Part shown: piece by piece, positions 43,243 to 56,108 of the stretch | Numbering within the stretch: position 1 is the stretch's first letter | Layout: each line of letters begins with the position of its first letter | NCBI GenBank assembly: GCA_024998625.1 | Contig: JACOEL010000002.1 | Location: forward strand, 1 to 64,000 | DNA length: 64,000 nucleotides | Source of the DNA: Nitrospira sp. | Lineage (GTDB): Bacteria; Nitrospirota; Nitrospiria; Nitrospirales; Nitrospiraceae | Direction: 5' to 3' | Translations under genes and position numbers: made by a program | The notes under the pieces: generated by a model | Told to the model about the DNA's origin: nothing | The model's database searches: none | What the model saw: only the letters and a program-made list of their open reading frames with translations

Positions 43243-44133
43243 TCACTGAGGACGCACAAACCGGAGCAGGCTCTCGCCTGCAGCCAGCCGCGAAAATTTC
43301 CGCTTCAACTCATTCACTCGATCGAGGTAGGTTCTTGCGCTGTGATCGCCGCACCGTTGCTGCGGGGCCAGTCGAAAGCCGCGGGCGACGTACGCGTGAC
43401 CGGCACCGGCCCCGCAGAGATGAATCAGGGCGGCCAGATCCTGCTTCTGTTGGAACGTGGGGCGAGGCCTTCGATGCGGACCGATTGCGTTCGCCACGGC
43501 GTGGTCGAGCAGGGCGGAGGTCAACTCGATGGCATGGCTCGGCAGGACGCGGCTATAGAAGGCATTGAACCAGCAGGAGTGAGGATCGTTCCAGGGACCT
43601 TCCTGGACGACATGATGGTCATGAATGCAGTACCGCTTCCCTGCCTGAAACGTGGCGTCGGTGATTTGGAACATGCCGACCGCGCTCGACGCCGGCCGAT
43701 ACCATTCCAGCGGATTCCAGCTCAGCCGCCAGCGCCAGTAGGTACGCGCGACCGGATTGCCCGCGCTTTCGACCTGCGCCAGCGCGGCCAGCAGATCCGG
43801 CGTCACGACAGCGGTGGAATGCGTGCGGAACAGCGGACCGTATTCTTTCCACGTTTCGTAGGGGTGTTTGTCGAGCGCGTCGTCGAGCGCAAAGAACATT
43901 TCCGTCGGCTTGTGGATCGTGTGGTAGACCCAATTCACACCCGCGCCGAAGAGCAGAAGGGCGGCCAAACCGACCACGAGTCTGGCCGTGAACGGCAAGC
44001 GCCGCAAGGCGACGAGGAGGCCTCGATACCTCTGCCGCCAGACGCGCCCGCGTCGGCGAACGGCCACAATCGTGCTCCTGCGTCCGCGCCTCCTGCGACG
44101 GATCACAGCCTGCGGATGCGAACGGGAAGGCAT
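43243..44133 (-). CDS. Membrane-anchored lytic transglycosylase-like protein
   Basis: A 296-residue protein. A strongly basic N-terminus (~1-50) precedes one membrane helix (~52-68, LVVGLAALLLFGAGVNWVY). A goose-lysozyme-like SLT domain follows with LLAALAQVESAGNPVA (catalytic Glu) and SSAVGMFQITDATF. It would cleave peptidoglycan strands from the periplasmic side. ATG 44133 is used because the longer frame runs into the repeat region upstream. Confidence 0.8.
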   Translation of the reverse strand: MPSRSHPQAVIRRRRRGRRSTIVAVRRRGRVWRQRYRGLLVALRRLPFTARLVVGLAALLLFGAGVNWVYHTIHKPTEMFFALDDALDKHPYETWKEYGPLFRTHSTAVVTPDLLAALAQVESAGNPVARTYWRWRLSWNPLEWYRPASSAVGMFQITDATFQAGKRYCIHDHHVVQEGPWNDPHSCWFNAFYSRVLPSHAIELTSALLDHAVANAIGPHRRPRPTFQQKQDLAALIHLCGAGAGHAYVARGFRLAPQQRCGDHSARTYLDRVNELKRKFSRLAAGESLLRFVRPQ

Positions 44134-44208
44134 GGGCTCACTATAACTCAAAAAGGGGAGTCGGAAGCCTGGTGATCCTCTTGCTCGCGGAACGCGCGCC
44201 CTCAGAAG

Positions 44209-44291
44209 GGCCTCGTTCGACGCGCGCAGTTGAGGAACCACCAGGCCTCCTTGAGGAGGAAACGAGCAAGCTTGGAAGGAGTATTGGAGTG
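44209..44291 (+). repeat. Imperfect direct repeat, unit 1
   Basis: Shares with 44335-44427 the blocks GCGCGCAGT, CTTGAGGAG/CTTGGAGGAG, CAAGCTTGG, AGGAG and TTGGAGT in the same order. It contains the hairpin CCTCC-TTGA-GGAGG. It is non-coding; frames crossing it are artefacts of the repeat. Confidence 0.6.
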
Positions 44292-44334
44292 ATCGTCTGC
44301 CAGCGTATCTATGATCAATCACGTTTAGATCGAG

Positions 44335-44427
44335 GGCGGTGCTCGGTCGATGCGCGCAGTGGAGGGATAGCTCCAGTCCGCCCTTGGAGGAGAACGGTGC
44401 GCAAGCTTGGGAGGAGCATTTGGAGTC
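44335..44427 (+). repeat. Imperfect direct repeat, unit 2
   Basis: Second unit of the pair, ~43 bases after the first. The conserved blocks are kept but the spacing differs by a few bases. The whole gap from 44134 to 44439 is filled by this pair and short spacers. It could be a structured RNA or a decayed mobile remnant. Confidence 0.6.
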
Positions 44428-44439
44428 GGATGTGCAAAC

Positions 44440-44931
44440 CTAGCCACTCTGCAAAGAAGGCGTCGCTGTTTTCATCGGCTCGCGATATTTGGCAAAACAG
44501 ATGAGATCCAGATGGTGGTAGTGGTTGGGAAGTACTGTTTCTGCCTTGTAGCCTAGGTTCAGGAAAAACTGAATGTTTCTGGCTGTCCGCAGCATGGTGC
44601 AGGCATAGAACTTATGGGTGTCGGTCGTGGCTTGCTCAATTTCTCGGATCAGTGCCTTTCCCACTCCAAGCTTCTGGTGGGCGGGGTTCACCGATAACAA
44701 CCGGATGACGCAGACTCCGGCCACGGTCCAAAAGCGCACCGATCCGACAATGACCTCCTCTGCCTCCGCCACGAAGATACGTTTTTCCTTGGCATCTTCC
44801 CTGAGGCTGTCGAGCGTTTCCGTGGTCCAGGCGCTCACTTCGTAGACCGTCGCGTATTCGCCGAAAGCCTCCCGCTGAACCTGGAGGATCGCTTCGAAGT
44901 CTACTTCGGTGGCTGGTCTAATGAGAATCAT
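44440..44931 (-). CDS. GNAT family N-acetyltransferase
   Basis: A 163-residue GNAT fold: ILIRPATEVDFEAILQVQREAF (beta1-alpha1), VRFWTVAGVCVIRLLSVNPAHQKLGVGKALI (acetyl-CoA loop of the R/Q-x2-G-x-G/A type, here QKLGVGKA), and ARNIQFFLNLGYK. The acceptor is unknown. ATG 44931 has GGAG upstream and begins at the domain edge. Confidence 0.85.
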   Translation of the reverse strand: MILIRPATEVDFEAILQVQREAFGEYATVYEVSAWTTETLDSLREDAKEKRIFVAEAEEVIVGSVRFWTVAGVCVIRLLSVNPAHQKLGVGKALIREIEQATTDTHKFYACTMLRTARNIQFFLNLGYKAETVLPNHYHHLDLICFAKYREPMKTATPSLQSG

Positions 44932-45197
44932 GAACGCTGCTCCGATCGGATTCACCTCATCTTGCGAAGGTGAAGATAGCAGAGCCTGGCCGGCATCTTC
45001 CATCTGCGCCGGCCGCCTCGCCGAGATCAATGAACAGGGGAAAACATCTGAACGAAGAGAACCGGTTGTTGTGGCTCTTTCAAGGCGGTACAAAGGTTAA
45101 GGTTATGGGTCATCGAAGACTATTCTCGATCAGGACTTATGATAATCAGGCGTCGGTCGCTCATCGCTGAACGACTACAACTGTGGAGACGCAATCC

Positions 45198-45494
45198 ATG
45201 AAGCTCAAGGTCGCACCCTCAACCGGGAATGTGTTTCGCGATCTTGGATTCGGCCGCGAGGAAGCCGAGCATTTATTGGTCAGAGCGGACCTCATGATCC
45301 AGACCCAGACGCTCCTGGCCTCTCGGGGGCTTAGGCAGAAAGCCGCGGCCCAGGTACTGGGCGTGACGCAGCCACGTGTCAGCGATCTCCTCCGGGGGCG
45401 CATCGATCTCTTCAGTACGGATGCGCTCATCGACATGGTGGCTCGACTTGGCGCCCGTGTTCGCCTGACGGTCAAGGCCCATCCGGCGGCGTGA
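45198..45494 (+). CDS. XRE-family HTH regulator (antitoxin-like), no partner seen
   Basis: A 98-residue protein of the HigA2/NadS-like class. It starts with a SGNVFRDLGF-type segment, then the helix-turn-helix LRQKAAAQVLGVTQPRVSDLLRGR at ~47-70. Proteins of this type are usually the second gene of a toxin-antitoxin pair, but the ~260 bases upstream encode no toxin. ATG 45198 has GGAGA 8 bases upstream. It starts the accessory-looking stretch. Confidence 0.85.
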   Translation: MKLKVAPSTGNVFRDLGFGREEAEHLLVRADLMIQTQTLLASRGLRQKAAAQVLGVTQPRVSDLLRGRIDLFSTDALIDMVARLGARVRLTVKAHPAA

Positions 45495-45941
45495 GGATCG
45501 CACAACGACCGACCAGCTGCCATGAGCTATCCACATCAGCCTTGAGATCTGAGTCCTGGATCATTCGGCGGCCGATGCCTTGCTGCGAGTGAAACTTCCT
45601 ATCAGTTCATTCGTCCCCTTGTTTAGGACAGAAGCTGTCTGTGTCCTAATTCTCTCTTCCAGCACGTATCGTATCGACCCCCTCAGAATACGTGTAATTC
45701 TCTCGGTGGGAAGGTTGACAGCCTTTCAACTTGAGACCTTTGATGTACCAAGTTAGATACTGCTCCGTACCAGAATGGATACAGCGTCACACTTCGTATC
45801 TTCAACGATGTTGAAGGAAAGATGGATATTCTTGCCATTCGCGTATTTTAACTGCCTCGGCTCATATCTTGCTTGCTTCGCCCTGTTCAGTAGCATGCCC
45901 CTAAACTATACGTACGTAGAGTTTTGCAAGGGAGGTGCGAA
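45495..45941. other. AT-richer intergenic region with hairpins
   Basis: About 447 bases, visibly AT-richer than the chromosome around it. It holds the hairpin at 45624-45650 and a perfect 7-bp-arm hairpin CTTCAAC-GAT-GTTGAAG at 45800-45816. An open frame at 45775 has no ribosome site and overlaps the next gene, so I do not call it. Promoters of the secreted protein/patatin pair are probably here. Confidence 0.5.
45624..45650 (+). terminator. Hairpin, possible terminator or operator
   Basis: TTAGGACA (45624-45631) and TGTCCTAA (45643-45650) are perfect 8-bp inverted arms around an 11-base loop, followed by the pyrimidine run TTCTCTCTTCC. An inner GACAG/CTGTC pairing competes with it. It may end the HTH gene's transcript. 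Confidence 0.4.
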
Positions 45942-46670
45942 ATGCGAACAGTGGCATTATTGCTTTTGTTTTTGATTGGACTTGGGTCTCCAGCATCCTG
46001 GGTTGCAACTGCCAGAGCCGAATCCGTCGAGGTTCCAAAGATCTACTCCAGGGATCAGAAACCGCTTGTCCCCGCACCGAAGATACTTAGCGAAGAGCAG
46101 GAACAACTGATGCTTCGAGACAAGTGCCTTATGGCCAGACCGGCCTTTGGTGACCTGGGGAACTACTGGTCGGTAGGTGTGACAGCTTCAATCCAAGCAG
46201 TTAAGTACACTTTTGGAACGAAACAGGCTTCATCAGCAGCAAGCACGGGCGCCGGTGTTGCCTTCCGTTACTATGGGAAGTCGCCTCTTGGCACTGAAGA
46301 CGCCGCCAAGGAACTCGGGTTTAGGAAAGCAGACTTAGAGGCATTAGAAAAGTTGGAAGGCGGAAAGTTCTACGATCAGACCACCGGCAACTACTCCCTT
46401 CCCATAAACAAGATCTCTACGACATGTCGAGCAACAACAAGTGATATCGGTAAGGATCGCACCGAGAAACTCGCATCTTCTATCTTTTCGCTCACCCCCA
46501 CAGTGTTCTATGTCAAGCAGGCGTCCGAGAACGATATTTCTCTGCAGCCAGCACTGCTCATCGGATTTTTTGACGACATTGTTAGTGTCGGTCCAGGCTT
46601 TAACCTGACAGGCCCTGAAAAGGGCAAAGTGTTCCTTGTCTTAAGCCTCGGATATGGTTTCAAGTTTTAG
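45942..46670 (+). CDS. Secreted protein of unknown function, upstream of the patatin gene
   Basis: A 242-residue protein with a signal peptide (hydrophobic ~4-20, cleavage near ATARAES). The C-terminal ~60 residues look like beta strands (LQPALLIGFFDDIVSVGPGFNL, VFLVLSLGYGFKF) and end in Phe, as outer-membrane barrels do; the barrel idea is inference. No family is recognised. AGGGAGGT precedes ATG 45942. Codon use and base composition are AT-richer than the core genes. Confidence 0.72.
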   Translation: MRTVALLLLFLIGLGSPASWVATARAESVEVPKIYSRDQKPLVPAPKILSEEQEQLMLRDKCLMARPAFGDLGNYWSVGVTASIQAVKYTFGTKQASSAASTGAGVAFRYYGKSPLGTEDAAKELGFRKADLEALEKLEGGKFYDQTTGNYSLPINKISTTCRATTSDIGKDRTEKLASSIFSLTPTVFYVKQASENDISLQPALLIGFFDDIVSVGPGFNLTGPEKGKVFLVLSLGYGFKF

Positions 46671-46817
46671 CACAGGTGGTCGAACATTGGTTGTTGAAGC
46701 CGGACGAGACCCTGTCCTCGCCTTTGTCAACGCAAGACTTGTGTAGGAAGTCCGATTTGTAACTGGCGTTCTCTCCTGCTTCATTGACAGGGTCGGCCTT
46801 TGGGTCGGGAGGACCTT

Positions 46818-49800
46818 ATGAACAAGAGGGAGCTAGTCATTCATGCGGTCTTTCAGCTCACTCTCCTCACCCCCATAACCGTTATTGCACAAGTATCTGC
46901 CCCACATGCCATAGAGCCCCCCATCTTGGGCCTCTCTCTATCTGGCGGAGGAATTCGCGCTGCTGCCTTTGCATACGGCGTGATGATTGAGCTCGATAAT
47001 ATAAAGGTTATCCCTTCTGATGAGATCCGATCTGGGCAATGCGTTATCAACACGCAGGCTACCAAAAGGGAGATCGATACAGTTGTTCCCTCCAAAGCTC
47101 AAGCTGAAAAGCCAAATCCCACGTGCGAAAGTTCTTCTCTGCTGGAGTCCTTTGACTACATTTCTACCGTGTCAGGTGGAACGATGACGGCTGGATACTA
47201 CCTCACACATTCAAAGCGGCAGTTCATGAATAATCTGCGAGGCAGCCTAGAAGATATGGGCATCTTGAGAAGATTGTTCTTTGGAGACAAGCTCTCCTGG
47301 TCGAAGACCGTAGATATTCCGACTCTCTTGAGTCCCTTTCCAATGCTGCTGGCATCCTCGGTCGACATTGCCCTTGCCCCACTACGAATACCATTCAGTT
47401 ATTTTGATATCAGATTTCCGGAGTTAACTCCGATCACAAGTCTGTCCTTTGTAAAAAGTATTTTCAGGGGGAACCAGCTTGCTGCGATCTACGACAAGGC
47501 ACTGTTCGGAGATAGGGAGGTAGGCCTTGGGCAACTCGATGATCCTAAGCCCGGGAAAAAGCGAGCACAATTGTTAGTCAATGCAACAGACCTATCGAGC
47601 GGGAGGACCTTCACATTTAATGAGAAGACTTTTCGTTGCATGGGTGCACAAGGTGATTTCAAAAAATTTCCGCTCGCGATGGCAGCGGCGGCTTCAAGCG
47701 CGTTACCAGGCATATTTTCACCCTTGGACCTTTCCCAGTACCTCAGCACATACAATCCTGAGGGGAGAGACCTCAGCGATTGCGCGACGGTCGAATGGCA
47801 GAAAACGCGTCCAACCAGGCTGGTTGACGGAGGGATTTCCGATAATCTTGGCCTCCTCAGCCTATTAGGGAAAATCTTCGAAGACAAATCTCAACGGAAT
47901 GGAGGGAATGGTCCGAAAAAGCGAGCGTTCATCGTTGCAGTCAATGCAGCCATTTCTGAAAGCTCTACGGTTCCCTTCGAAATTGCAAAAAACATCGATG
48001 ACAGTTTCGATGTTTTGATGACCAACAAGACGGATCTCACGCGCACTCTGTTTGAGGAACGGTTAGCCAACTTCGGTATTGCCGTGGTGGAGTTTCGGCT
48101 CTCCGATGTCCTGAGAAACGAGAACATCATACATCGAATCGCCGCAAGCCTGAAGAACTCGCCTGGCTTGTCGATGGACGATGATAAAGTTCATGAAGTG
48201 ATGAACGCTGGTTTTGAGCACACTCAAATTGAGCAGCGGATCTTCAACGATCTCAATAAACTAGGCCTCTACCCGACCTCTCAAGAAGTCGAAACGTTGA
48301 TCGAAGCTGGTCGGGCCATTGTGCGTCAACGCGCAGACACCTTGTTGCAACGGTATGACCAGCTTCGAAAACGTCGATTTATCCCCAACTGTAACAACGT
48401 CATCACTCCAGAAACATCCTACTGTTGGCCGGCTCAATTCAACTTGGCCAATGTTCTCTCTGCGTCTACAGGCGTGATGCTGAAGGATTACATGGCCGTT
48501 ACAGAAGGGTTTTTTAAAACCAGTACGGAGAACCGACTTCGCTACATTAAAGAAATGCAATCCACAAATCGGGAGTGGCTGCGTCTGAAAAATTCGTACG
48601 GACATATGCCCATAAAGAAGTTCTTTTCCTCATTCGAAAAGAAAATCGCACAGGACGAGCAATACTATGATCTGACAGGTAACTCTGCAATGAAGGCAAG
48701 CATCAGTTCATTTTCAGCCTGTTATTTGCCCATTTTTGGAAAGAATAGGTCCAATCTCGAAACAGTCTTTAAAGATGCCCCAAAATCAGACGATCCACCA
48801 GATGAATTGTGCCGTCGTCATAAAGATTACTGCCGTGGACTGACCACGCTGCAAGAAGAGATCAAATCGACTTGCATGCCTTCCAGCCAAAATAGAGGTG
48901 TGGGATCACCATGGTTGTTCCGAGTCATCGGAAGACTCTCGGCTGCAGTGAATAGCTCCGACCAAGCGATTCGATATCTCGATCAGGGGCTGCAGCAGTA
49001 TCCGCACGACATGAACCTCAATGCCTTTATGGGCTATTACCGCATCATCTATCGAGCAGACTATTTGGCTGGAATCCGCTACATGCGTCGAGCTCTATCG
49101 ACTGCCGACTCACATCTGCAGGAACTAGAGCATCTCAAAATGTCAACTCTAGAGGGTACGTATGCTGACCTCAAGCAAAGATATGTGGAGGCAAGACAGA
49201 TCTTTATGGCAGCAATCGCTTATTACTCAGCCCTTTCATCCACTCCACTGCCAGGAGATGAATCGATCGTTTCCCACCAGGACGTTGAAGAATGGTTAGC
49301 CCAGCACTTTCCTCCCCTCACTGAATCAACACTGAGCCAACCAGGCCAGCGGATCTGTCTAGAAAGCGAAACTGTGAATTCCTTGAGGCTTACCCTCTTG
49401 ACTCCTGAACTCAAAAGTGTGTTTCGTCGTAAGATCGCACAAGAATTTATGAGGCATGATTCCAGTCCGTTGCCTGTCGACCAATGGCTTGCAAAGCCTG
49501 AAAATGAGGGGCGGGTTCAAACATGGATCGAAACGAACGTTGCGGAACTGTTCTCCCCGTCAACAGCTCGCTTGAATAGTTGGAGGAAAAATCCGTTCCC
49601 TCCTGAAGACGAATGGTTCTGTTTAGGCAGCCAACAAGGTACGGAACAAGATGCCACGCTGACCAAGTCCCTTATCTCTCTCTTACGTGAGGGCGCACGG
49701 AAGCACGTGGTTGATGTCTCAGGGCTTAAGCAGGCGGAAAGAATGGTTCAGTCACTGTATGCTGCCTCAACCCATTTGTCGAATGAGCATCGTCGGCAAA

Positions 49801-50066
49801 TCGCCGATGCGTACGGGTTAATTCTCTTGATCAGAAATGGAGAATTTGAATGCCCAAGACGTGAAGGGGCCATTAGGAATGCGTTGCGCTACTTCGAGGA
49901 AGCGCGGGAAGCGTTGCTTAAAGAACAGCCAGTCAATGGCGATGACCCTGATATGGAGTTAGAAATCGAAGAACTTGATCTTCATTCTCGCGCTGCAGCC
50001 TCGCTTGCCTGTTCCTTGCCGACTGAGCAGTCGGGCAAACAGAAGGAGGGCCAAGTCTTGTATTGA
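46818..50066 (+). CDS. Very large exported patatin-like phospholipase
   Basis: A 1082-residue protein. A signal-like N-terminus (~6-25) precedes a patatin domain to ~390: oxyanion loop SGGGIR (42-47), nucleophile Ser119 in STVSGGT and catalytic Asp337 in VDGGISDNLG. The Ser motif reads V-S-G-G rather than the usual G-x-S-x-G. The C-terminal ~690 residues are mostly helical, with a TPR-like part (~715-800) about repeated work units such as ALSTADSHLQELEHL. ATG 46818 has GGGAGG upstream. Likely a lipid acyl hydrolase acting outside the cytoplasm. Confidence 0.83.
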   Translation: MNKRELVIHAVFQLTLLTPITVIAQVSAPHAIEPPILGLSLSGGGIRAAAFAYGVMIELDNIKVIPSDEIRSGQCVINTQATKREIDTVVPSKAQAEKPNPTCESSSLLESFDYISTVSGGTMTAGYYLTHSKRQFMNNLRGSLEDMGILRRLFFGDKLSWSKTVDIPTLLSPFPMLLASSVDIALAPLRIPFSYFDIRFPELTPITSLSFVKSIFRGNQLAAIYDKALFGDREVGLGQLDDPKPGKKRAQLLVNATDLSSGRTFTFNEKTFRCMGAQGDFKKFPLAMAAAASSALPGIFSPLDLSQYLSTYNPEGRDLSDCATVEWQKTRPTRLVDGGISDNLGLLSLLGKIFEDKSQRNGGNGPKKRAFIVAVNAAISESSTVPFEIAKNIDDSFDVLMTNKTDLTRTLFEERLANFGIAVVEFRLSDVLRNENIIHRIAASLKNSPGLSMDDDKVHEVMNAGFEHTQIEQRIFNDLNKLGLYPTSQEVETLIEAGRAIVRQRADTLLQRYDQLRKRRFIPNCNNVITPETSYCWPAQFNLANVLSASTGVMLKDYMAVTEGFFKTSTENRLRYIKEMQSTNREWLRLKNSYGHMPIKKFFSSFEKKIAQDEQYYDLTGNSAMKASISSFSACYLPIFGKNRSNLETVFKDAPKSDDPPDELCRRHKDYCRGLTTLQEEIKSTCMPSSQNRGVGSPWLFRVIGRLSAAVNSSDQAIRYLDQGLQQYPHDMNLNAFMGYYRIIYRADYLAGIRYMRRALSTADSHLQELEHLKMSTLEGTYADLKQRYVEARQIFMAAIAYYSALSSTPLPGDESIVSHQDVEEWLAQHFPPLTESTLSQPGQRICLESETVNSLRLTLLTPELKSVFRRKIAQEFMRHDSSPLPVDQWLAKPENEGRVQTWIETNVAELFSPSTARLNSWRKNPFPPEDEWFCLGSQQGTEQDATLTKSLISLLREGARKHVVDVSGLKQAERMVQSLYAASTHLSNEHRRQIADAYGLILLIRNGEFECPRREGAIRNALRYFEEAREALLKEQPVNGDDPDMELEIEELDLHSRAAASLACSLPTEQSGKQKEGQVLY

Positions 50067-50279
50067 CACATTCACACTCGCTCCTCTCAGTCGCCGGAAA
50101 ATAATTCATGCTGACCGGCGCCGACCCTGGATAGAGATTGTGTGAAAGGAATGCTGCGCGGCCTGTGAACTTCGGCGGCAGATCTTCCTCCAAGTGTCCT
50201 GCTCTGGCATGTAGAATGGGTCGTCACGCACCGACGCCCATTGAACCTATCGGGTGCATGGCCTATCATGCAACCAGCG

Positions 50280-50516
50280 ATGAAGAACCTCCTTGATCGG
50301 ATCAGCATCAATCCTCGCATCTGCCATGGTCAGCCCTGCGTGAAAGGGACACGCATCATGGTCTGGCTCGTTGTCCAGTACCTTGCCCATGGCGACAGGG
50401 TTGAAGATGTGCTGGTTGCCTACCCAAGTCTCAGTCGGGAGGACGTCCAGGCCTGCCTTGCCTATGCCGCCGAAATGACCCGCGAACGGGTCATCCCGGT
50501 TGAGGTTACGACCTGA
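50280..50516 (+). CDS. DUF433 antitoxin
   Basis: A 78-residue DUF433 protein: LDRISINPRICHGQPCVKGTRIMVWLVVQYL, then SREDVQACLAYAAE. DUF433 proteins carry a helix-turn-helix and pair with PIN-like DUF5615 toxins. The toxin gene starts 2 bases after this stop. The ribosome site is weak. Confidence 0.85.
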   Translation: MKNLLDRISINPRICHGQPCVKGTRIMVWLVVQYLAHGDRVEDVLVAYPSLSREDVQACLAYAAEMTRERVIPVEVTT

Positions 50517-50518
50517 TC

Positions 50519-50889
50519 GTGCGGTTCAAACTGGACGAGAATTGCGATCCACGTTGGAAGGCGCCGCTCCTATCAGCCGGGTATGACATTGCTACGGTCT
50601 TTGATGAAAATCTTCAAGGTTCGGAGGACGAAACGATTGCCTCGGCATGGCGGCGCGAGGGACGCTGCTTGATCACGGCGGATCTGGATTTCGCCCAACT
50701 CCTGGATTTCCCACCACAGAATTACTCAGGTTTCATTGTGCTGCGTCATCCACGACCTACTCTTGCTGGGTGAAGGCCCTGATCGAACAAGTCGTTCTCG
50801 CCGTTGCGAAGGAATCGCCTTCCGGGCGGTTATGGATCGTTGAGCCGGGGCGCATCCGCATCCACCTGTCCGCTGCCGAAAACGAGTGA
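50519..50889 (+). pseudogene. DUF5615 PIN-like toxin, frameshifted
   Basis: The first 84 residues (from GTG 50519) match DUF5615: MRFKLDENCDPRW, acidic residues in TADLDFAQL, and SGFIVLRHPRP. A stop occurs at 50771-50773. The family's C-terminal segment continues in another frame to 50889: VKALIEQVVLAVA, then GRLWIVEPGRIRI. One added base near 50765-50770 would restore the frame. Loss of this C-terminus probably inactivates the RNase, unless the break is a sequencing error. Confidence 0.75.
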
Positions 50890-51069
50890 ATTTTATTGTA
50901 GGGAGCATGGAAAGGGTCCAGTCTCGTTTCCCACAGCGGTCACTCGTCTTGCGCGGTACAGTGGTACAGCGCCGCATCGCGCGCTCTCAGCCGGCAGTTG
51001 ACAGTATCCCCTCCGAACAGTAGCTTGTGCCTGTTCTCTGCTTCGAGCCCCAACCAGGAGGACGCAGTC

Positions 51070-52092
51070 ATGCCGACGCAGGATCAGGCCGGAGGGCCCA
51101 CGCCCCAATTGTTCTTTCAAACCGCCAATGCCTACCAACGGACTCAAGCGCTGAAGGCTGCCGTCGACTTGGATCTGTTCACCGCGATCGGCGGGGGGAA
51201 GGACAGCGTGGAAACGCTTGCGAAATGTTGTGGCGCGGCGGAGCGGGGCGTGCGGATGTTGGCGGACTACCTGACCATCCAGGGCTTCCTTACGAAAGAG
51301 GGAAGCAAGTACAAGTTGACGCCGGACTCCGCGCTGTTTCTCGATCGCCGGTCCCCGGCTTACATGGGGTCGGTCTTGGGGTTCTTGCATGCGCCGAAGT
51401 TCACCGAGGCGTTCCAGAATCTTACCGAGGCGGTTCGAAAGGGAGGCACCGTGGCGGGCGAGGCCGGCACCGTCGCTCCGGAACATCCCCTCTGGGTTGA
51501 ATTTGCGAAATCGATGATTCCCATGATGGCCAAGCCGGCGGAAGAGATCGGCATCTTCGTGCGACAGACCCAGCCGGGGGTGAAAAAGGTCTTGGACATC
51601 GCGGCGGGGCATGGACTCTTCGGGATCGACATCGCCAAACGGTGCCCGCAGGCCGAGATCGTCGCGCTCGATTGGCCGAACGTCTTAACCGTTGCCCAAG
51701 ATATGGCGCGTCAGGCCGGCATCCAGGCGCGTTACAGGACGATCGCCGGCGACGCGTTTCAGCAGGATTTCGGGACGGATTACGACCTGGTGCTGCTCAC
51801 CAATTTTCTCCATCACTTTTCCATGGCCACCTGCGAGGCGCTATTGCGCAAGGTCCATCGCGCTCTCGCCCCCGGCGGCCGGGTCATCACCCTGGAGTTC
51901 GTGCCCAATGAGGACCGCGTCACGCCGCCTCCTGTGGCCGAGTTCTGCCTGATCATGCTCGCCACGACACCGGAAGGGGACGCCTACACCTTCAAGGAAT
52001 ACGACCGGATGTTCCGCGCCGCTGGCTTTGCCCGCACCGAACTGCATCCGGTGGCCGGCTCGCTCGAGCAGGTACTCGTGTCTTCTAACTAG
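51070..52092 (+). CDS. O-methyltransferase family (Methyltransf_2) protein
   Basis: A 340-residue protein with an N-terminal dimerisation domain (QLFFQTANAYQRTQALKAAVDLDLFTAI) and a SAM domain: VLDIAAGHGLFGIDIAK (motif I), EIVALDWPNVL, NFLHHFS (catalytic His region) and LAPGGRVITLEFVP. It is a paralogue of the gene at 17331. AGGAGG precedes ATG 51070. Substrate unknown. Confidence 0.88.
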   Translation: MPTQDQAGGPTPQLFFQTANAYQRTQALKAAVDLDLFTAIGGGKDSVETLAKCCGAAERGVRMLADYLTIQGFLTKEGSKYKLTPDSALFLDRRSPAYMGSVLGFLHAPKFTEAFQNLTEAVRKGGTVAGEAGTVAPEHPLWVEFAKSMIPMMAKPAEEIGIFVRQTQPGVKKVLDIAAGHGLFGIDIAKRCPQAEIVALDWPNVLTVAQDMARQAGIQARYRTIAGDAFQQDFGTDYDLVLLTNFLHHFSMATCEALLRKVHRALAPGGRVITLEFVPNEDRVTPPPVAEFCLIMLATTPEGDAYTFKEYDRMFRAAGFARTELHPVAGSLEQVLVSSN

Positions 52093-52164
52093 ATGGTCGG
52101 TGACGGTCTGGAACGGAGCCGGCGCCGTTGAACGGCGTCTGGAGTGGCAGGTCGGAGTCAGCGG

Positions 52165-52671
52165 ATGAATCAGCGGGAAAACAAGACTGCAGGACCCCTC
52201 ACGCGATTTCTGGCGGATGACCACCGACGACTCGACATACAGCTGCGGGCGGCGGTTGTTGATGCCGGCCCTGTTGATCCGGGAGCCTACGCTCAATTTC
52301 GCGCCGGGCTTCTTCGGCACATTGGGATGGAGGAGAAGATCCTCCTGCCTGCCGTCCAGCGACTGCGCGTGGGGGAACCGCTTCCCATCGCTGCCAAGCT
52401 CCGCCTCGACCATGGAGCTTTGGCGGCATTGCTCATGCCGACGCCGACCGCCGCGATCGCGGCAACGATCAAGGCCATTCTCGCCGATCACAATGCGTTG
52501 GAGGAGGGAACGGGCGGCCTGTATGAAATCTGTGACCAACTGGCCGGTTCGGAAGCGGAATCACTTCTGGCCAAACTCCGGGCTGCACCGGAAGTCACGG
52601 TGATGCCGCACTCCGGCAGTCCTGCAGTGATGAATGTCCTGCGTCGGACGCTGGAGAGAGCCGGGTACTAG
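52165..52671 (+). CDS. Hemerythrin-like protein
   Basis: A 168-residue four-helix protein with the di-iron ligand pattern: His20 (DDHRRLD), His52 and Glu56 (RHIGMEEKILLP), His83 (LDHGAL), His109 and Glu113 (ADHNALEEG). Hemerythrin-like proteins bind O2 or sense redox or nitrosative stress. It lacks a sensor or signal partner. It is convergent with the restriction gene. Confidence 0.88.
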   Translation: MNQRENKTAGPLTRFLADDHRRLDIQLRAAVVDAGPVDPGAYAQFRAGLLRHIGMEEKILLPAVQRLRVGEPLPIAAKLRLDHGALAALLMPTPTAAIAATIKAILADHNALEEGTGGLYEICDQLAGSEAESLLAKLRAAPEVTVMPHSGSPAVMNVLRRTLERAGY

Positions 52672-52823
52672 CTGCGCGGCGTTGAAGGTGCGGAAGAGAC
52701 GAATTAACGGTACCGGCGATTCGGTTGAACGAGCGGGGATAACAGGCCTCGCCACACCGCCATCCTTCCCACGCGCAACCGGCTCATACGCGCAGTATCT
52801 CCAGATCTTTTGTCTGACTCATG

Positions 52824-53588
52824 CTACTGGCTTTGACTTCCGAGAAAGGTGACCACGTGACCTCTTAGTGCAGCCACGAAACGTTGAAACGTCAAATCCT
52901 CGGCTGGTTGTGAGATCCGTGTCTTGGTTGAATTCGTCGCCATCATGAAGCAGGCTGAGGTATATAGCCGTTCCAATACCAGTCGGCGACAGAGGATTTC
53001 GTATCGCTTGCTATAAGAAACTCCTTTATGCCGTCGGAGATTTAAAGTGCCTTTGAGTTCGGCATCGCCGCGGAACTCCGGATCAACTTGAAAATACGGC
53101 TCTTTGTTGGAGACCGGCGATTTGACGTTTTCACGATCTTCCAACAAGAACAAGTAGCCGAGAAAAGGGGGTGGACATTGGCCAAAACGGCCTTCTCGGA
53201 AGGCGGTCCATATATCCTTAGCACTGCCGACCGCTTCCTCGGTACGATTATTCAAATTGTTGCCGATCGATTTGCCGGCTTGAGACTTGAATTCCATCGC
53301 GAGCACCAATGCACCGTTGGATATCACGATGAGATCCCACTTTTTTGTGGCTCTGAAGTAACCCGGAAGCTCGAGGGCAGTCCTCGTGCGCACATCGAGT
53401 CTTTCTAAACCGGCTTCACAGAGGATGTCTGAAACCAACACTTCAAGCGCTCCCATTTGGGTGCCGCCTGTGACTTCGCCTCGCGTCCCTGCATCGATTC
53501 TTCCGGATTCGGCTTGCTTTGCTTTGTTTTTTCGTCGAGCGTTCCAGTAACTTTGAACAGCAGCTCGCAGTCTCCTGTCAATATCCAA
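52824..53588 (-). CDS. PaeR7I/XhoI-type restriction endonuclease
   Basis: A 254-residue type II endonuclease of the XhoI/PaeR7I family, near the usual ~245 residues. The nuclease core is visible: Asp85 in KKWDLIVIS, Glu99 and Lys101 in LAMEFKSQAGKS (PD-(D/E)xK type). Family members cut CTCGAG; the same target is inferred here. The start is TTG 53588, inside the 3' end of the methyltransferase gene (11-base overlap), so expression depends on the methylase gene. Confidence 0.9.
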   Translation of the reverse strand: MDIDRRLRAAVQSYWNARRKNKAKQAESGRIDAGTRGEVTGGTQMGALEVLVSDILCEAGLERLDVRTRTALELPGYFRATKKWDLIVISNGALVLAMEFKSQAGKSIGNNLNNRTEEAVGSAKDIWTAFREGRFGQCPPPFLGYLFLLEDRENVKSPVSNKEPYFQVDPEFRGDAELKGTLNLRRHKGVSYSKRYEILCRRLVLERLYTSACFMMATNSTKTRISQPAEDLTFQRFVAALRGHVVTFLGSQSQ

Positions 53589-55296
53589 GCGCTGTCTCCA
53601 TCAAGGAGGAGTTAATCCCATACAAGCGATAGGCTATTTCGGTTGCCTTTTGCCTGTCGCGACGACGGAAGGCGTCCCGTAATTCCTGAGACCGTACTTC
53701 GGAAAGGTCATTTGGGGCAGGGACTCGAATCCGACGCAGATACTGTGCCTGGAAGCGCAAGTAGCCTCCTCGCATTCGGACGCAATATGATTCCACAAAG
53801 AACTGTCCGACGGCCGACATGAGTAATCCGCCGAGTACCTCTAAGTCCCAATCATCGGACTGAATGAAGTAGAGATTGTGGTGCGGGTAGGTTTCGCCTC
53901 GATCCAACACCGGCTCCAGCACGTCCTTGATGTCCGGGATATAGAGTTTTGGTTTGGCAATGAGTGCAAGATTCACACGGTCGATGGTCTTATACCAACC
54001 GGCCGGGCTCTTTCCCGCCGTGTGGCGTTTTTTAAGGGCGACGGCATGGTGTTCGTAATAGGTCTTCAATTTGGGATAGGCCTCTAAATCCACCAGGCCA
54101 TCGGCATTCCAAGGGTTCACAAGGTAATGCCCTGACCATTCGAGCCTGCCTCCAGTCACGTCTTTTGCGAGAGCCAACTTCAGAAGACGAGAGCCTTCCA
54201 CAAGACTCTCATCGGCTGTAATGTACACACTGTCGTTTCCTGTGGCGACGCCGATTCCGACTTTGGCATTCGTCTCAAGGCGGGGGAACTCATCCTCCAA
54301 CCGTCGAAGGAGCGCCAGTTGCTCAGGCGAATGGCAAGGCCAAGGATCTGATCCTTTGAACCAAGTGTTCACTCTTGCCACATGGATTCCTTGGGGGAGA
54401 GTTGAACGTGCATCGTGATTTTTCCCAAGAAGTGTGGTCAACAATTGCGCGGGTTGGACCGTTTCAGCTTCCGGTTCGACCATTGCCACAACGGCAGGTT
54501 GTTGTTTCCTATGCCGGATGACGGTGATTGCAGGATAGGCATCTACTTCATTTTCAAAGGCATTCACTTTGTGCATGTTCAGGAGAAGTTCAAGGCTATA
54601 GGCGGAGGTAATCAGTCGGCGCAATTCCGTTCCGTATTGATTCCGCATCCACCGGTCGGCGCAAATGAAAGAGCAAACACCGTTGACTTTGAGCTGTCGA
54701 AGGGCGGCTTCAAAAAACGCCACATACAGGTCCGCCCTGCCGTACATCGTCGGGTACGCGCTACGGTAAAGTGAGGCGGTCTCTTCGGGAATGTCCTCCA
54801 TGCGCACATAAGGAGGATTTCCGATTATAAAATCTGCCTCTCTGGTGCTGGCATCGAAAAGGTAATCCTGCGTGGCGACCCATGCGCGAACCAACCGTTC
54901 TGCGATGGAGGGGCTGACGCCGTGATCTGCCAAGATACGCAGGGCAAGGGTTCTTGCAAGGGTTGCGCTGGTTTCATCCAACTCATAGGCAATGAGGGAG
55001 GATTCACAGTCCAACAAAGGCCGACCGAGCTTTCGACAGGACTCGAGGAGGCGTTCGATCATCGGCCCGAGGAATGCCCCATCACCCGCTGCTGGTTCAA
55101 TGGCTAGGGCATCCACCAGGTTCCGATCATCCGTATAGCCGCTCAAATCCAGGAGGAGCTCCACAACCCATTGTTTCGTATAGACGACACCCTTCGGCTC
55201 GATCACTGTTACAGGAGAAGGTCGGCTGGAAGGCGCCATTAACTGGAGCTGAATGCCTTGCGTCGCAATTGATGGGAGAATTTTGACTTCTTCCAC
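53578..55296 (-). CDS. N6-adenine DNA methyltransferase of the PaeR7I-type system
   Basis: A 572-residue Eco57I/PaeR7I-like adenine methyltransferase. The SAM-binding motif is EPAAGDGAFL (67-76) and the catalytic motif is NPPY (160-163). A long C-terminal target-recognition region (~280-570) has VRMRGGYLRFQAQYLRRIRVP near the end. It should protect the CTCGAG sites cut by the adjacent endonuclease. Start is GTG 55296 with GAGG upstream. No C (controller) gene is adjacent. Confidence 0.9.
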   Translation of the reverse strand: MEEVKILPSIATQGIQLQLMAPSSRPSPVTVIEPKGVVYTKQWVVELLLDLSGYTDDRNLVDALAIEPAAGDGAFLGPMIERLLESCRKLGRPLLDCESSLIAYELDETSATLARTLALRILADHGVSPSIAERLVRAWVATQDYLFDASTREADFIIGNPPYVRMEDIPEETASLYRSAYPTMYGRADLYVAFFEAALRQLKVNGVCSFICADRWMRNQYGTELRRLITSAYSLELLLNMHKVNAFENEVDAYPAITVIRHRKQQPAVVAMVEPEAETVQPAQLLTTLLGKNHDARSTLPQGIHVARVNTWFKGSDPWPCHSPEQLALLRRLEDEFPRLETNAKVGIGVATGNDSVYITADESLVEGSRLLKLALAKDVTGGRLEWSGHYLVNPWNADGLVDLEAYPKLKTYYEHHAVALKKRHTAGKSPAGWYKTIDRVNLALIAKPKLYIPDIKDVLEPVLDRGETYPHHNLYFIQSDDWDLEVLGGLLMSAVGQFFVESYCVRMRGGYLRFQAQYLRRIRVPAPNDLSEVRSQELRDAFRRRDRQKATEIAYRLYGINSSLMETALGY

Positions 55297-55461
55297 TGGG
55301 GCCTCAAGTCCTTGGTTGGATTCCGGAGAAATGGCAACGGATACTAGCTTGTCCGGTCACTTCGTTCAACACGGATGTTTGCAGTGTGGGGGAGTGCACA
55401 CCTAATTTCATCGACGGATTATGGACGAAACCAAAGCCGAGGATCGAGAGGAGGGGCGGGA

Positions 55462-55929
55462 TCATTGCCGTTCCGGACCAGTCTGTGGCAACAGCAGCTC
55501 CCTTTCCATCCTCCGATGCGGGATACCGGCGTCCATGAACGGTTCGCCGACCACGTGGAACCCGGCCCGTTCATAAAATCCAAGCGCATGGATTTGTGCG
55601 GATAGCGTGACGCGTGCGAGCCCCTGCTTAACCGCCAGATCCAGCAGTGTCTGGAGAAGGGCCCGTCCGACGCCGCGCCCTCGCCAGTCCTTGAGGACCG
55701 CCATTCTCCCGATGGTGCCATTCTGTTGCATGCGTGCCGTGCCGATGGCCTCTCCGCGGTCGTTCCACGCCAGCACATGGGCACAGGTCGGATCGAGTCC
55801 ATCCCATTCCAAGCCTTCCGGCACTCCCTGCTCGACAATGAACACCGTTTCGCGAATGGTCCTGAGGGCCGAGCTTGATTCGTCCCAGTCGGCCAATTCT
55901 ACCCGTCCTGTCTCCCATTGTTGCGTCAT
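55462..55929 (-). CDS. GNAT family N-acetyltransferase
   Basis: A ~155-residue GNAT protein similar to the ElaA/YjcF type. It has IRETVFIVEQGVPEGLEWDG, IGRMAVLKDWRGRGVGRALL (acetyl-CoA loop RGRGVGRA) and LSAQIHALGFYERAGFHVVGEPF. The acceptor is unknown. ATG 55929 fits the family N-terminus; starts up to 56040 are open but add unrelated sequence. Confidence 0.87.
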   Translation of the reverse strand: MTQQWETGRVELADWDESSSALRTIRETVFIVEQGVPEGLEWDGLDPTCAHVLAWNDRGEAIGTARMQQNGTIGRMAVLKDWRGRGVGRALLQTLLDLAVKQGLARVTLSAQIHALGFYERAGFHVVGEPFMDAGIPHRRMERELLLPQTGPERQ

Positions 55930-56108
55930 GATGTTATGACCCCATCGATCCATCCAGTATTCCGCCCCTGACTCCGAACGGTACGTCTCAAATGTAATTC
56001 TCTTTTGGAGGATCGGCAACCACATGGTACCGTTCATCATGATGGTCTGCCTGTGACGCGAAGCAGGCGCGCGCCGACTGGCCCCGGTTCACCGATGGGA
56101 GGTCATCC

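What the first reader, a model, noticed from the sequence alone, without database searches (positions are those of the whole stretch)
46818..50066. Giant exported patatin paired with a secreted barrel-like protein
A 1082-residue patatin with a signal-like N-terminus, a non-canonical V-S-G-G nucleophile elbow and ~690 residues of helical C-terminus follows a gene for an unknown secreted protein (45942). Both have strong ribosome sites and AT-richer composition than neighbours and lie in a stretch with toxin-antitoxin and restriction genes. Known autotransporter patatins fuse the lipase to a barrel; here the two might be split. A two-gene lipase secretion or inter-bacterial effector system is an inference.
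Basis: partly seen in the sequence, partly recalled or inferred. Interest (0 to 1): 0.6.

Follow-up and report, generated by a model that had tools for sequence, protein, structure and literature searches.

The report
Exported lipase with outer-membrane partner
A large exported fat-splitting enzyme (patatin) sits directly after the gene for a small outer-membrane barrel-like protein whose relatives in other bacteria almost always sit next to exported lipases of other kinds, so the two form one version of a mix-and-match lipase cassette; what the barrel does for the enzyme is not known.

Summary
Window 46818-50063 encodes a 1082-aa exported patatin (oxyanion GGGIR, Ser119, Asp337). 45942-46670 encodes an exported 242-aa protein ending in a textbook outer-membrane beta-signal. 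The exact pair is unique to this genome: in 175 genomes of the family the patatin occurs in 7 and the barrel in 8, and only this genome has both. The generalisation survives and is stronger. The barrel family (15 of 235 genomes of the order) is directly next to an exported lipolytic enzyme in 10 of 13 readable loci, and those enzymes have unrelated folds. The other six patatin relatives all follow three small lipoproteins (A-B-C). The same block precedes an alpha/beta-hydrolase in one genome and another patatin in a second. The window is the missing combination, barrel plus patatin, in an AT-rich variable island between conserved genes. A two-partner secretion role is not supported: the barrel is too small, has no POTRA or Omp85 match, and the patatin C-terminus looks TPR-like. 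Most likely it is an exported lipase with an outer-membrane docking, lipid-handling or self-protection partner; which of these is open.

The parts
45942..46670 (+). Small exported outer-membrane barrel-like protein, 242 aa
   Evidence: ORF and translation; family in 15/235 genomes of the order; AF2 pLDDT 80.5, strands 76-90,102-110,182-192,199-209,214-220,230-240; VIA best rows NspA Z 5.0, OprF-N 4.9, PagL 4.8
45930..45935 (+). Ribosome site GGGAGG of the barrel gene
   Evidence: sequence
45942..46019 (+). Signal-peptide-like N-terminus of the barrel protein
   Evidence: MRTVALLLLFLIGLGSPASWVATARA; h-region mean hydropathy 2.94
46629..46667 (+). C-terminal beta-signal (FLVLSLGYGFKF)
   Evidence: strict pattern met by 4 of 304 background ORFs, namely three members of this family and one FadL
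46671..46817 (+). 147-bp gap, no terminator-like site on either strand
46807..46812 (+). Ribosome site GGGAGG of the patatin gene
   Evidence: sequence
46818..50066 (+). Exported patatin with TPR-like C-terminus, 1082 aa
   Evidence: PF01734 E 4e-10; alignment A2
46818..46889 (+). Signal-peptide-like N-terminus of the patatin
46944..46958 (+). Oxyanion-hole motif GGGIR (residues 43-47)
   Evidence: G43-G45 and R47 invariant in six
47169..47180 (+). Nucleophile elbow V-S119-G-G
   Evidence: invariant in six
47826..47834 (+). Catalytic D337-G-G
   Evidence: invariant in six
48615..50060 (+). Helical TPR-like C-terminal region (best modelled at residues ~600-830 and 970-1060)
   Evidence: AF2 pLDDT mostly 60-86 in those blocks; VIA top rows are TPR proteins, Z up to 14.8
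44440..56040 (.). Variable island between the conserved transglycosylase-like gene (43243-44322) and the conserved GNAT/UspA/RND genes (55462 onward)
   Evidence: nearly empty in G008 and short in G015 and G010

Best explanation
This is one version of an exchangeable exported-lipase cassette. SHOWN by sequence: the patatin is exported and keeps its catalytic residues; the upstream protein is exported and carries an outer-membrane beta-signal; its family recurs next to exported lipolytic enzymes of unrelated folds; the patatin's family normally carries a three-lipoprotein block instead. INFERRED: the patatin is sent through the inner membrane and hydrolyses phospholipid or other acyl ester in the periplasm or at the outer membrane. 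Its TPR-like tail docks it to a partner in the envelope. The small barrel is the outer-membrane partner that holds the enzyme there, and handles its lipid substrate or product or shields the producer. It does not work as a pore that secretes the whole enzyme.
For: Barrel family in 15/235 genomes. Next to an exported lipolytic hydrolase in G057, G060, G101, G194, G270 and G371 (alpha/beta-hydrolase lipoprotein, gaps 3-95 bp where both ends can be read), G328 (Lipase_3), G410 and G411 (start of a lipoprotein 32% identical to the giant hydrolase-like protein of G270), and G000 (patatin). In G416 a Tle1-like enzyme lies two genes away (E 2.3e-71). Chance for a random gene to adjoin the alpha/beta-hydrolase family is about 7e-5. 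Partner swap: A-B-C lipoproteins precede the patatin in 6/6 relatives, an alpha/beta-hydrolase in G283, and a different 747-aa patatin in G016. FadL, a known outer-membrane channel, lies directly before the same hydrolase family in G032 and G319. Beta-signal. No match to the B/C lipoprotein profile and no such hydrolase in G000.
Against: The exact barrel-patatin pair is seen once. The barrel model does not show a closed barrel: Foldseek has nothing below E 0.1 and the best VIA Z is 5.0. The gap is 147 bp, so co-transcription is not proven. The loci share ancestry, so they are not all independent. No genetic or biochemical evidence separates docking, lipid handling and protection.
Confidence: 0.5

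Rival explanations
1. Lipid scavenging: the enzyme releases fatty acids at the cell surface or in the periplasm and the barrel, like FadL, is the way in for the product.
For: FadL (PF03349, E 7e-34) is the gene directly upstream of the same exported hydrolase family in G032, and a split FadL precedes it in G319; the barrel occupies the same place in other genomes.
Against: Only two FadL cases; the small barrel shows no FadL similarity and a barrel of 6-8 strands has little room for a channel.
Confidence: 0.25
2. Antagonism: the exported lipase is a weapon (delivered by an unknown route) and the barrel or A-B-C lipoproteins are immunity proteins, as with Tle/Tli pairs.
For: Sporadic, AT-rich island with R-M and toxin-antitoxin genes; several lipase folds paired with small envelope proteins; a Tle1-like gene near the barrel in G416; Tli1 and Tli3 are outer-membrane lipoproteins (PMC9860674).
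Against: The patatin has a signal peptide, which T6SS effectors lack; one barrel family would have to neutralise enzymes of unrelated folds; no VgrG or PAAR gene noticed nearby (not searched systematically).
Confidence: 0.2
3. Secretion pair: the barrel exports the patatin across the outer membrane (split type Vd or two-partner secretion).
For: Barrel plus exported patatin; type Vd proteins fuse the same enzyme to a barrel (PMC5724010).
Against: Type Vd uses a 16-strand Omp85-type barrel with POTRA; here ~170 aa of beta region, no Pfam match, no POTRA. The patatin family works elsewhere without this barrel.
Confidence: 0.07
4. Chance neighbours in an island that collects unrelated cargo.
For: Pair unique to G000; the hotspot carries mixed cargo; 147-bp gap.
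Against: The barrel family's neighbours are exported lipases in 10/13 readable loci and the patatin family elsewhere always has envelope partners upstream; given both genes, chance of this order and strand is about 1e-4; near-equal GC and codon-position GC.
Confidence: 0.15

Closest known systems
Type Vd autotransporters PlpD and FplA
   Same: Exported patatin phospholipase tied to an outer-membrane beta-barrel
   Different: There one chain with POTRA and a 16-strand Omp85-type barrel; here two genes, a small barrel and a TPR-like tail
Type VI lipase effector and immunity pairs (Tle/Tli)
   Same: Lipases of several folds paired with small envelope proteins in variable loci
   Different: Here the enzymes have signal peptides or lipoboxes and no T6SS part was noticed; the same partner family is reused for unrelated enzymes
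FadL/TodX outer-membrane channels
   Same: Lie at the same place, directly upstream of the same exported hydrolase family, in two genomes
   Different: FadL is a large characterised channel; the window protein has no sequence similarity to it
Small 8-stranded outer-membrane barrels (NspA, OprF-N, PagL, OmpA, Ail, OmpX, PagP)
   Same: Size, C-terminal beta-signal, weak structural match
   Different: No sequence match; about six long strands modelled, with a long helical insert, and variable N-terminal Ig/PKD/BACON-like domains in relatives
Patatin-like phospholipases (PF01734)
   Same: Catalytic core with Ser-Asp dyad and oxyanion motif
   Different: Divergent (27-30% to its nearest full-length relatives), exported, long TPR-like tail, genes for envelope proteins directly upstream

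Membership tests
Patatin-like phospholipase (PF01734) | Profile match above curated cut-off | tested here: met
   40.7 bits against 27.7; all six members of A2 match
Patatin-like phospholipase (PF01734) | Oxyanion GGGxR, Ser in GxSxG-like elbow, Asp in DG[GA] | tested here: met
   GGGIR, TVS119GG (first Gly replaced), D337GG; the catalytic positions are invariant in six
Patatin-like phospholipase (PF01734) | Phospholipase or acyl-hydrolase activity | not testable with these tools
   needs an assay
Type Vd autotransporter | Patatin, POTRA and 16-strand Omp85-type barrel in one chain | tested here: not met
   No POTRA or PF01103 match; C-terminus helical, TPR-like; definition from PMC5724010
Two-partner secretion (type Vb) | TpsB partner of Omp85 type with POTRA domains | tested here: not met
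   45942 protein is 242 aa with no Pfam, NCBIfam or PADLOC match above cut-off
T6SS lipase effector/immunity pair | Effector without signal peptide, linked to VgrG, PAAR or T6SS genes | tested here: inconclusive
   Patatin has a signal-like N-terminus; T6SS genes were not searched genome-wide
Outer-membrane beta-barrel protein | Signal peptide and C-terminal aromatic beta-signal | tested here: met
   strict pattern in 4 of 304 background ORFs, all barrel family or FadL
Outer-membrane beta-barrel protein | Closed transmembrane barrel fold | tested here: inconclusive
   AF2 pLDDT 80.5 with six long strands; VIA best Z 5.0 to NspA, rmsd 4.1 over 103 residues
TPR solenoid (patatin C-terminus) | TPR profile or fold match | tested here: inconclusive
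   TPR_14 E 0.055, below cut-off; VIA Z 14.8 to LGN TPR, rmsd 4.3 over 226 residues, but mean pLDDT only 42.7

The most novel reading that the evidence does not exclude
Bacteria of this order carry a general envelope module for exported lipases in which partner sets (small barrel, or A-B-C lipoproteins, or FadL) and enzyme folds (patatin, alpha/beta-hydrolase, class-3 lipase, perhaps Tle1-like or zinc phospholipase) are freely recombined, so that one docking or protection principle serves unrelated enzymes; the window is the barrel-patatin recombinant.
Probability: 0.35. Interest if true: 0.72.

Novelty: new variant of a known kind. Interest (0 to 1): 0.52.

Why it matters
It gives an uncharacterised outer-membrane protein family, without any match in Pfam, NCBIfam or the PDB, a testable job: partner of exported lipases. 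If one partner family serves enzymes of unrelated folds, it points to a shared mechanism for docking, for passing lipids or for protecting the producer, which differs from one-to-one effector-immunity pairs and from single-chain patatin autotransporters.

Tried and rejected
Searches of PLSDB plasmids with both proteins and with the hydrolase found nothing. Genome-contig scans found no relatives of the patatin or of the G194 barrel, and the alignment A1 had no stretch conserved enough to scan with. The idea that the barrel is a remote relative of lipoproteins A, B or C was rejected for lack of signal (hhalign probability under 1%). Neither family has a PDB relative by sequence. The AF2 model of the full patatin is too poor outside the helical tail, so no structural claim is made for the catalytic domain. 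The barrel's fold search did not show a significant match to any known barrel family. A residual copy of the alpha/beta-hydrolase or of lipoproteins B/C in the window's genome was looked for and not found. A split type Vd system was considered and rejected: no POTRA, barrel too small.

Full report
OBSERVATION. The gene at 46818-50066 is real: one open frame of 1082 codons with a GGGAGG ribosome site five bases before its ATG. It matches Pfam Patatin well above the curated cut-off. Each of the six has a hydrophobic, signal-like N-terminus. The gene at 45942-46670 encodes a second exported protein, 147 bp upstream on the same strand, with no terminator-like site found between them. Both genes have GC of 0.49-0.50 against 0.61 in the flanks.

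THE UPSTREAM PROTEIN. It has no match above cut-off in Pfam, NCBIfam or PADLOC, and its family profile finds nothing in the PDB. A family alignment of ten shows cysteines at 62 and 162 (162 invariant; 62 kept in most), glycine-rich alternating strands and an aromatic C-terminus. The last residues FLVLSLGYGFKF follow the outer-membrane beta-signal rule (established knowledge: C-terminal Phe or Trp, hydrophobic or aromatic at every second position before it). With a strict pattern only 4 of 304 background reading frames pass: three members of this family and one FadL, a true outer-membrane barrel. The AlphaFold2 model has mean pLDDT 80.5 and six long strands in residues 76-240. Foldseek finds no significant PDB match. 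The second look by VIA-align puts NspA, OprF N-domain, PagL, OmpA, Ail, OmpX and PagP, all 8-stranded outer-membrane barrels, among its best rows, but at Z 4-5 only. I take it as an outer-membrane beta-protein, probably a small barrel; closure of the barrel is not shown.

CO-OCCURRENCE. In 175 genomes of the same family the patatin occurs in 7 and the barrel in 8; only the window's genome has both. One overlap is what chance could give (expected 0.32). In 235 genomes of the order the barrel occurs in 15.

WHAT THE BARREL SITS NEXT TO. I read all 15 loci. In six (G057, G060, G101, G194, G270, G371) the direct neighbour is an exported alpha/beta-hydrolase lipoprotein of about 580 aa with V/I-H-G-G and G-H-S-x-G motifs; in G101 it is flanked by two of them and in G057 the order is reversed. 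In G328 the next gene is a class-3 lipase lipoprotein (PF01764). In G410 and G411 it is the start of a lipoprotein 32% identical to a giant hydrolase-like protein of G270 (G410 fragment compared). In the window it is the patatin. In G416 a Tle1-like enzyme (E 2.3e-71) lies two genes away. In G336 the neighbour is a weak, below-cut-off match to zinc phospholipase C/DUF6765. G330 has no lipase nearby, G351 ends at the contig edge, and G425 is degraded. That is 10 direct neighbours in 13 readable loci, with one more two genes away and one weak. In G371 the cluster goes on with a Het-C/zinc-phospholipase-like protein and two exported patatins. The chance of a random gene adjoining the alpha/beta-hydrolase family is about 7e-5. 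The loci share descent, so the formal tail probability overstates the case, but several unrelated enzyme types and both gene orders argue against mere inheritance.

WHAT THE PATATIN SITS NEXT TO ELSEWHERE. All six relatives (G004, G007, G023, G028, G227, G277) are the last gene of an operon with three small lipoproteins that I call A, B and C (in G004 and G007 protein B was located by the family search). In G283 the same A-B-C block is followed by the alpha/beta-hydrolase of the barrel loci, in G209 by another exported hydrolase-like protein with a G-H-S-F-G motif, and in G016 by an A-like protein, B, C and a different 747-aa lipoprotein patatin. The FadL channel lies directly upstream of the alpha/beta-hydrolase in G032 and, split in two frames, in G319. 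Partner sets and enzymes are thus exchanged. The window supplies the combination barrel plus patatin. Its genome has no match to the B/C lipoprotein profile or the hydrolase profile.

THE ISLAND. The left flank (43243-44322) and the right flank (55462 onward) are conserved in relatives. In G008 they lie about 140 bp apart; in G015 and G010 one and three other genes lie between them. At the same place, on the same side of the left-flank gene, G001 and G007 carry an exported class-3 lipase, G005 the alpha/beta-hydrolase, and G016 the A-B-C-patatin set. The window's pair is accessory cargo at a hotspot that repeatedly carries exported lipases.

MECHANISM. Shown by sequence: export, intact catalytic residues, outer-membrane signal, recurrent neighbourhood, partner swapping. 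Inferred: the patatin acts on acyl lipids of the envelope; its helical C-terminus (best modelled at 600-830 and 970-1060; VIA top rows are TPR proteins with Z up to 14.8) docks it to an envelope partner; the barrel is that partner and handles lipids or protects the producer. A secretion pore is unlikely, since type Vd uses a 16-strand barrel with POTRA (PMC5724010). Antagonism stays possible: the immunity proteins of Tle1 and Tle3 are outer-membrane lipoproteins (PMC9860674), but Tle effectors are delivered without a signal peptide (own knowledge) and each has its own immunity protein. FadL at the equivalent place favours lipid uptake. I put 0.5 on the docking/handling/protection reading as a whole.

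LIMITS. The searches covered one phylum; named collections gave nothing. The patatin's catalytic domain could not be modelled well. Nothing here is experimental.

Noticed in passing
window 43243-56040; loci L156-L169: Chromosomal hotspot between a transglycosylase-like gene and GNAT/UspA/RND genes: nearly empty in one relative, filled with lipases, R-M genes or other cargo in others.
   Followed up: partly
window 52824-55296 (-): XhoI-type restriction enzyme with an adenine methyltransferase; close homologues of both (68-85% identity) sit in the same hotspot in G007 and G006 (L162, L168).
   Followed up: partly
window 45183-45494 (+): HTH_37 antitoxin-like gene for which I saw no obvious toxin partner beside it.
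   Followed up: no
window 50241-50773 (+): DUF433-DUF5615 pair, antitoxin plus PIN-like toxin, directly downstream of the patatin.
   Followed up: no
L080 719-1849 (-), L053 389-1486 (-): Barrel relatives with N-terminal PKD or BACON-like domains, which suggests variable adhesion-type domains in front of the barrel.
   Followed up: partly
L131 4749-7891 (+); L143 6016-8544 (-): FadL outer-membrane channel directly upstream of the exported alpha/beta-hydrolase (split into two frames in L143).
   Followed up: partly
L056 775-8431 (-): Cluster of two exported patatins, a Het-C/zinc-phospholipase-like protein, a peptidase-like protein, an alpha/beta-hydrolase and the end of a barrel gene.
   Followed up: partly
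L127 5774-7556 (-), L124 5710-6974 (+), L125 5823-7417 (+), L139 473-2184 (+): The A-like/B-C lipoprotein pair is more widespread than the lipases and sometimes sits beside a membrane protein; function unknown.
   Followed up: partly
G000:C25:128744-128890 (locus L153): A second very long open frame (1341 codons) in the same genome with a partial patatin match.
   Followed up: no
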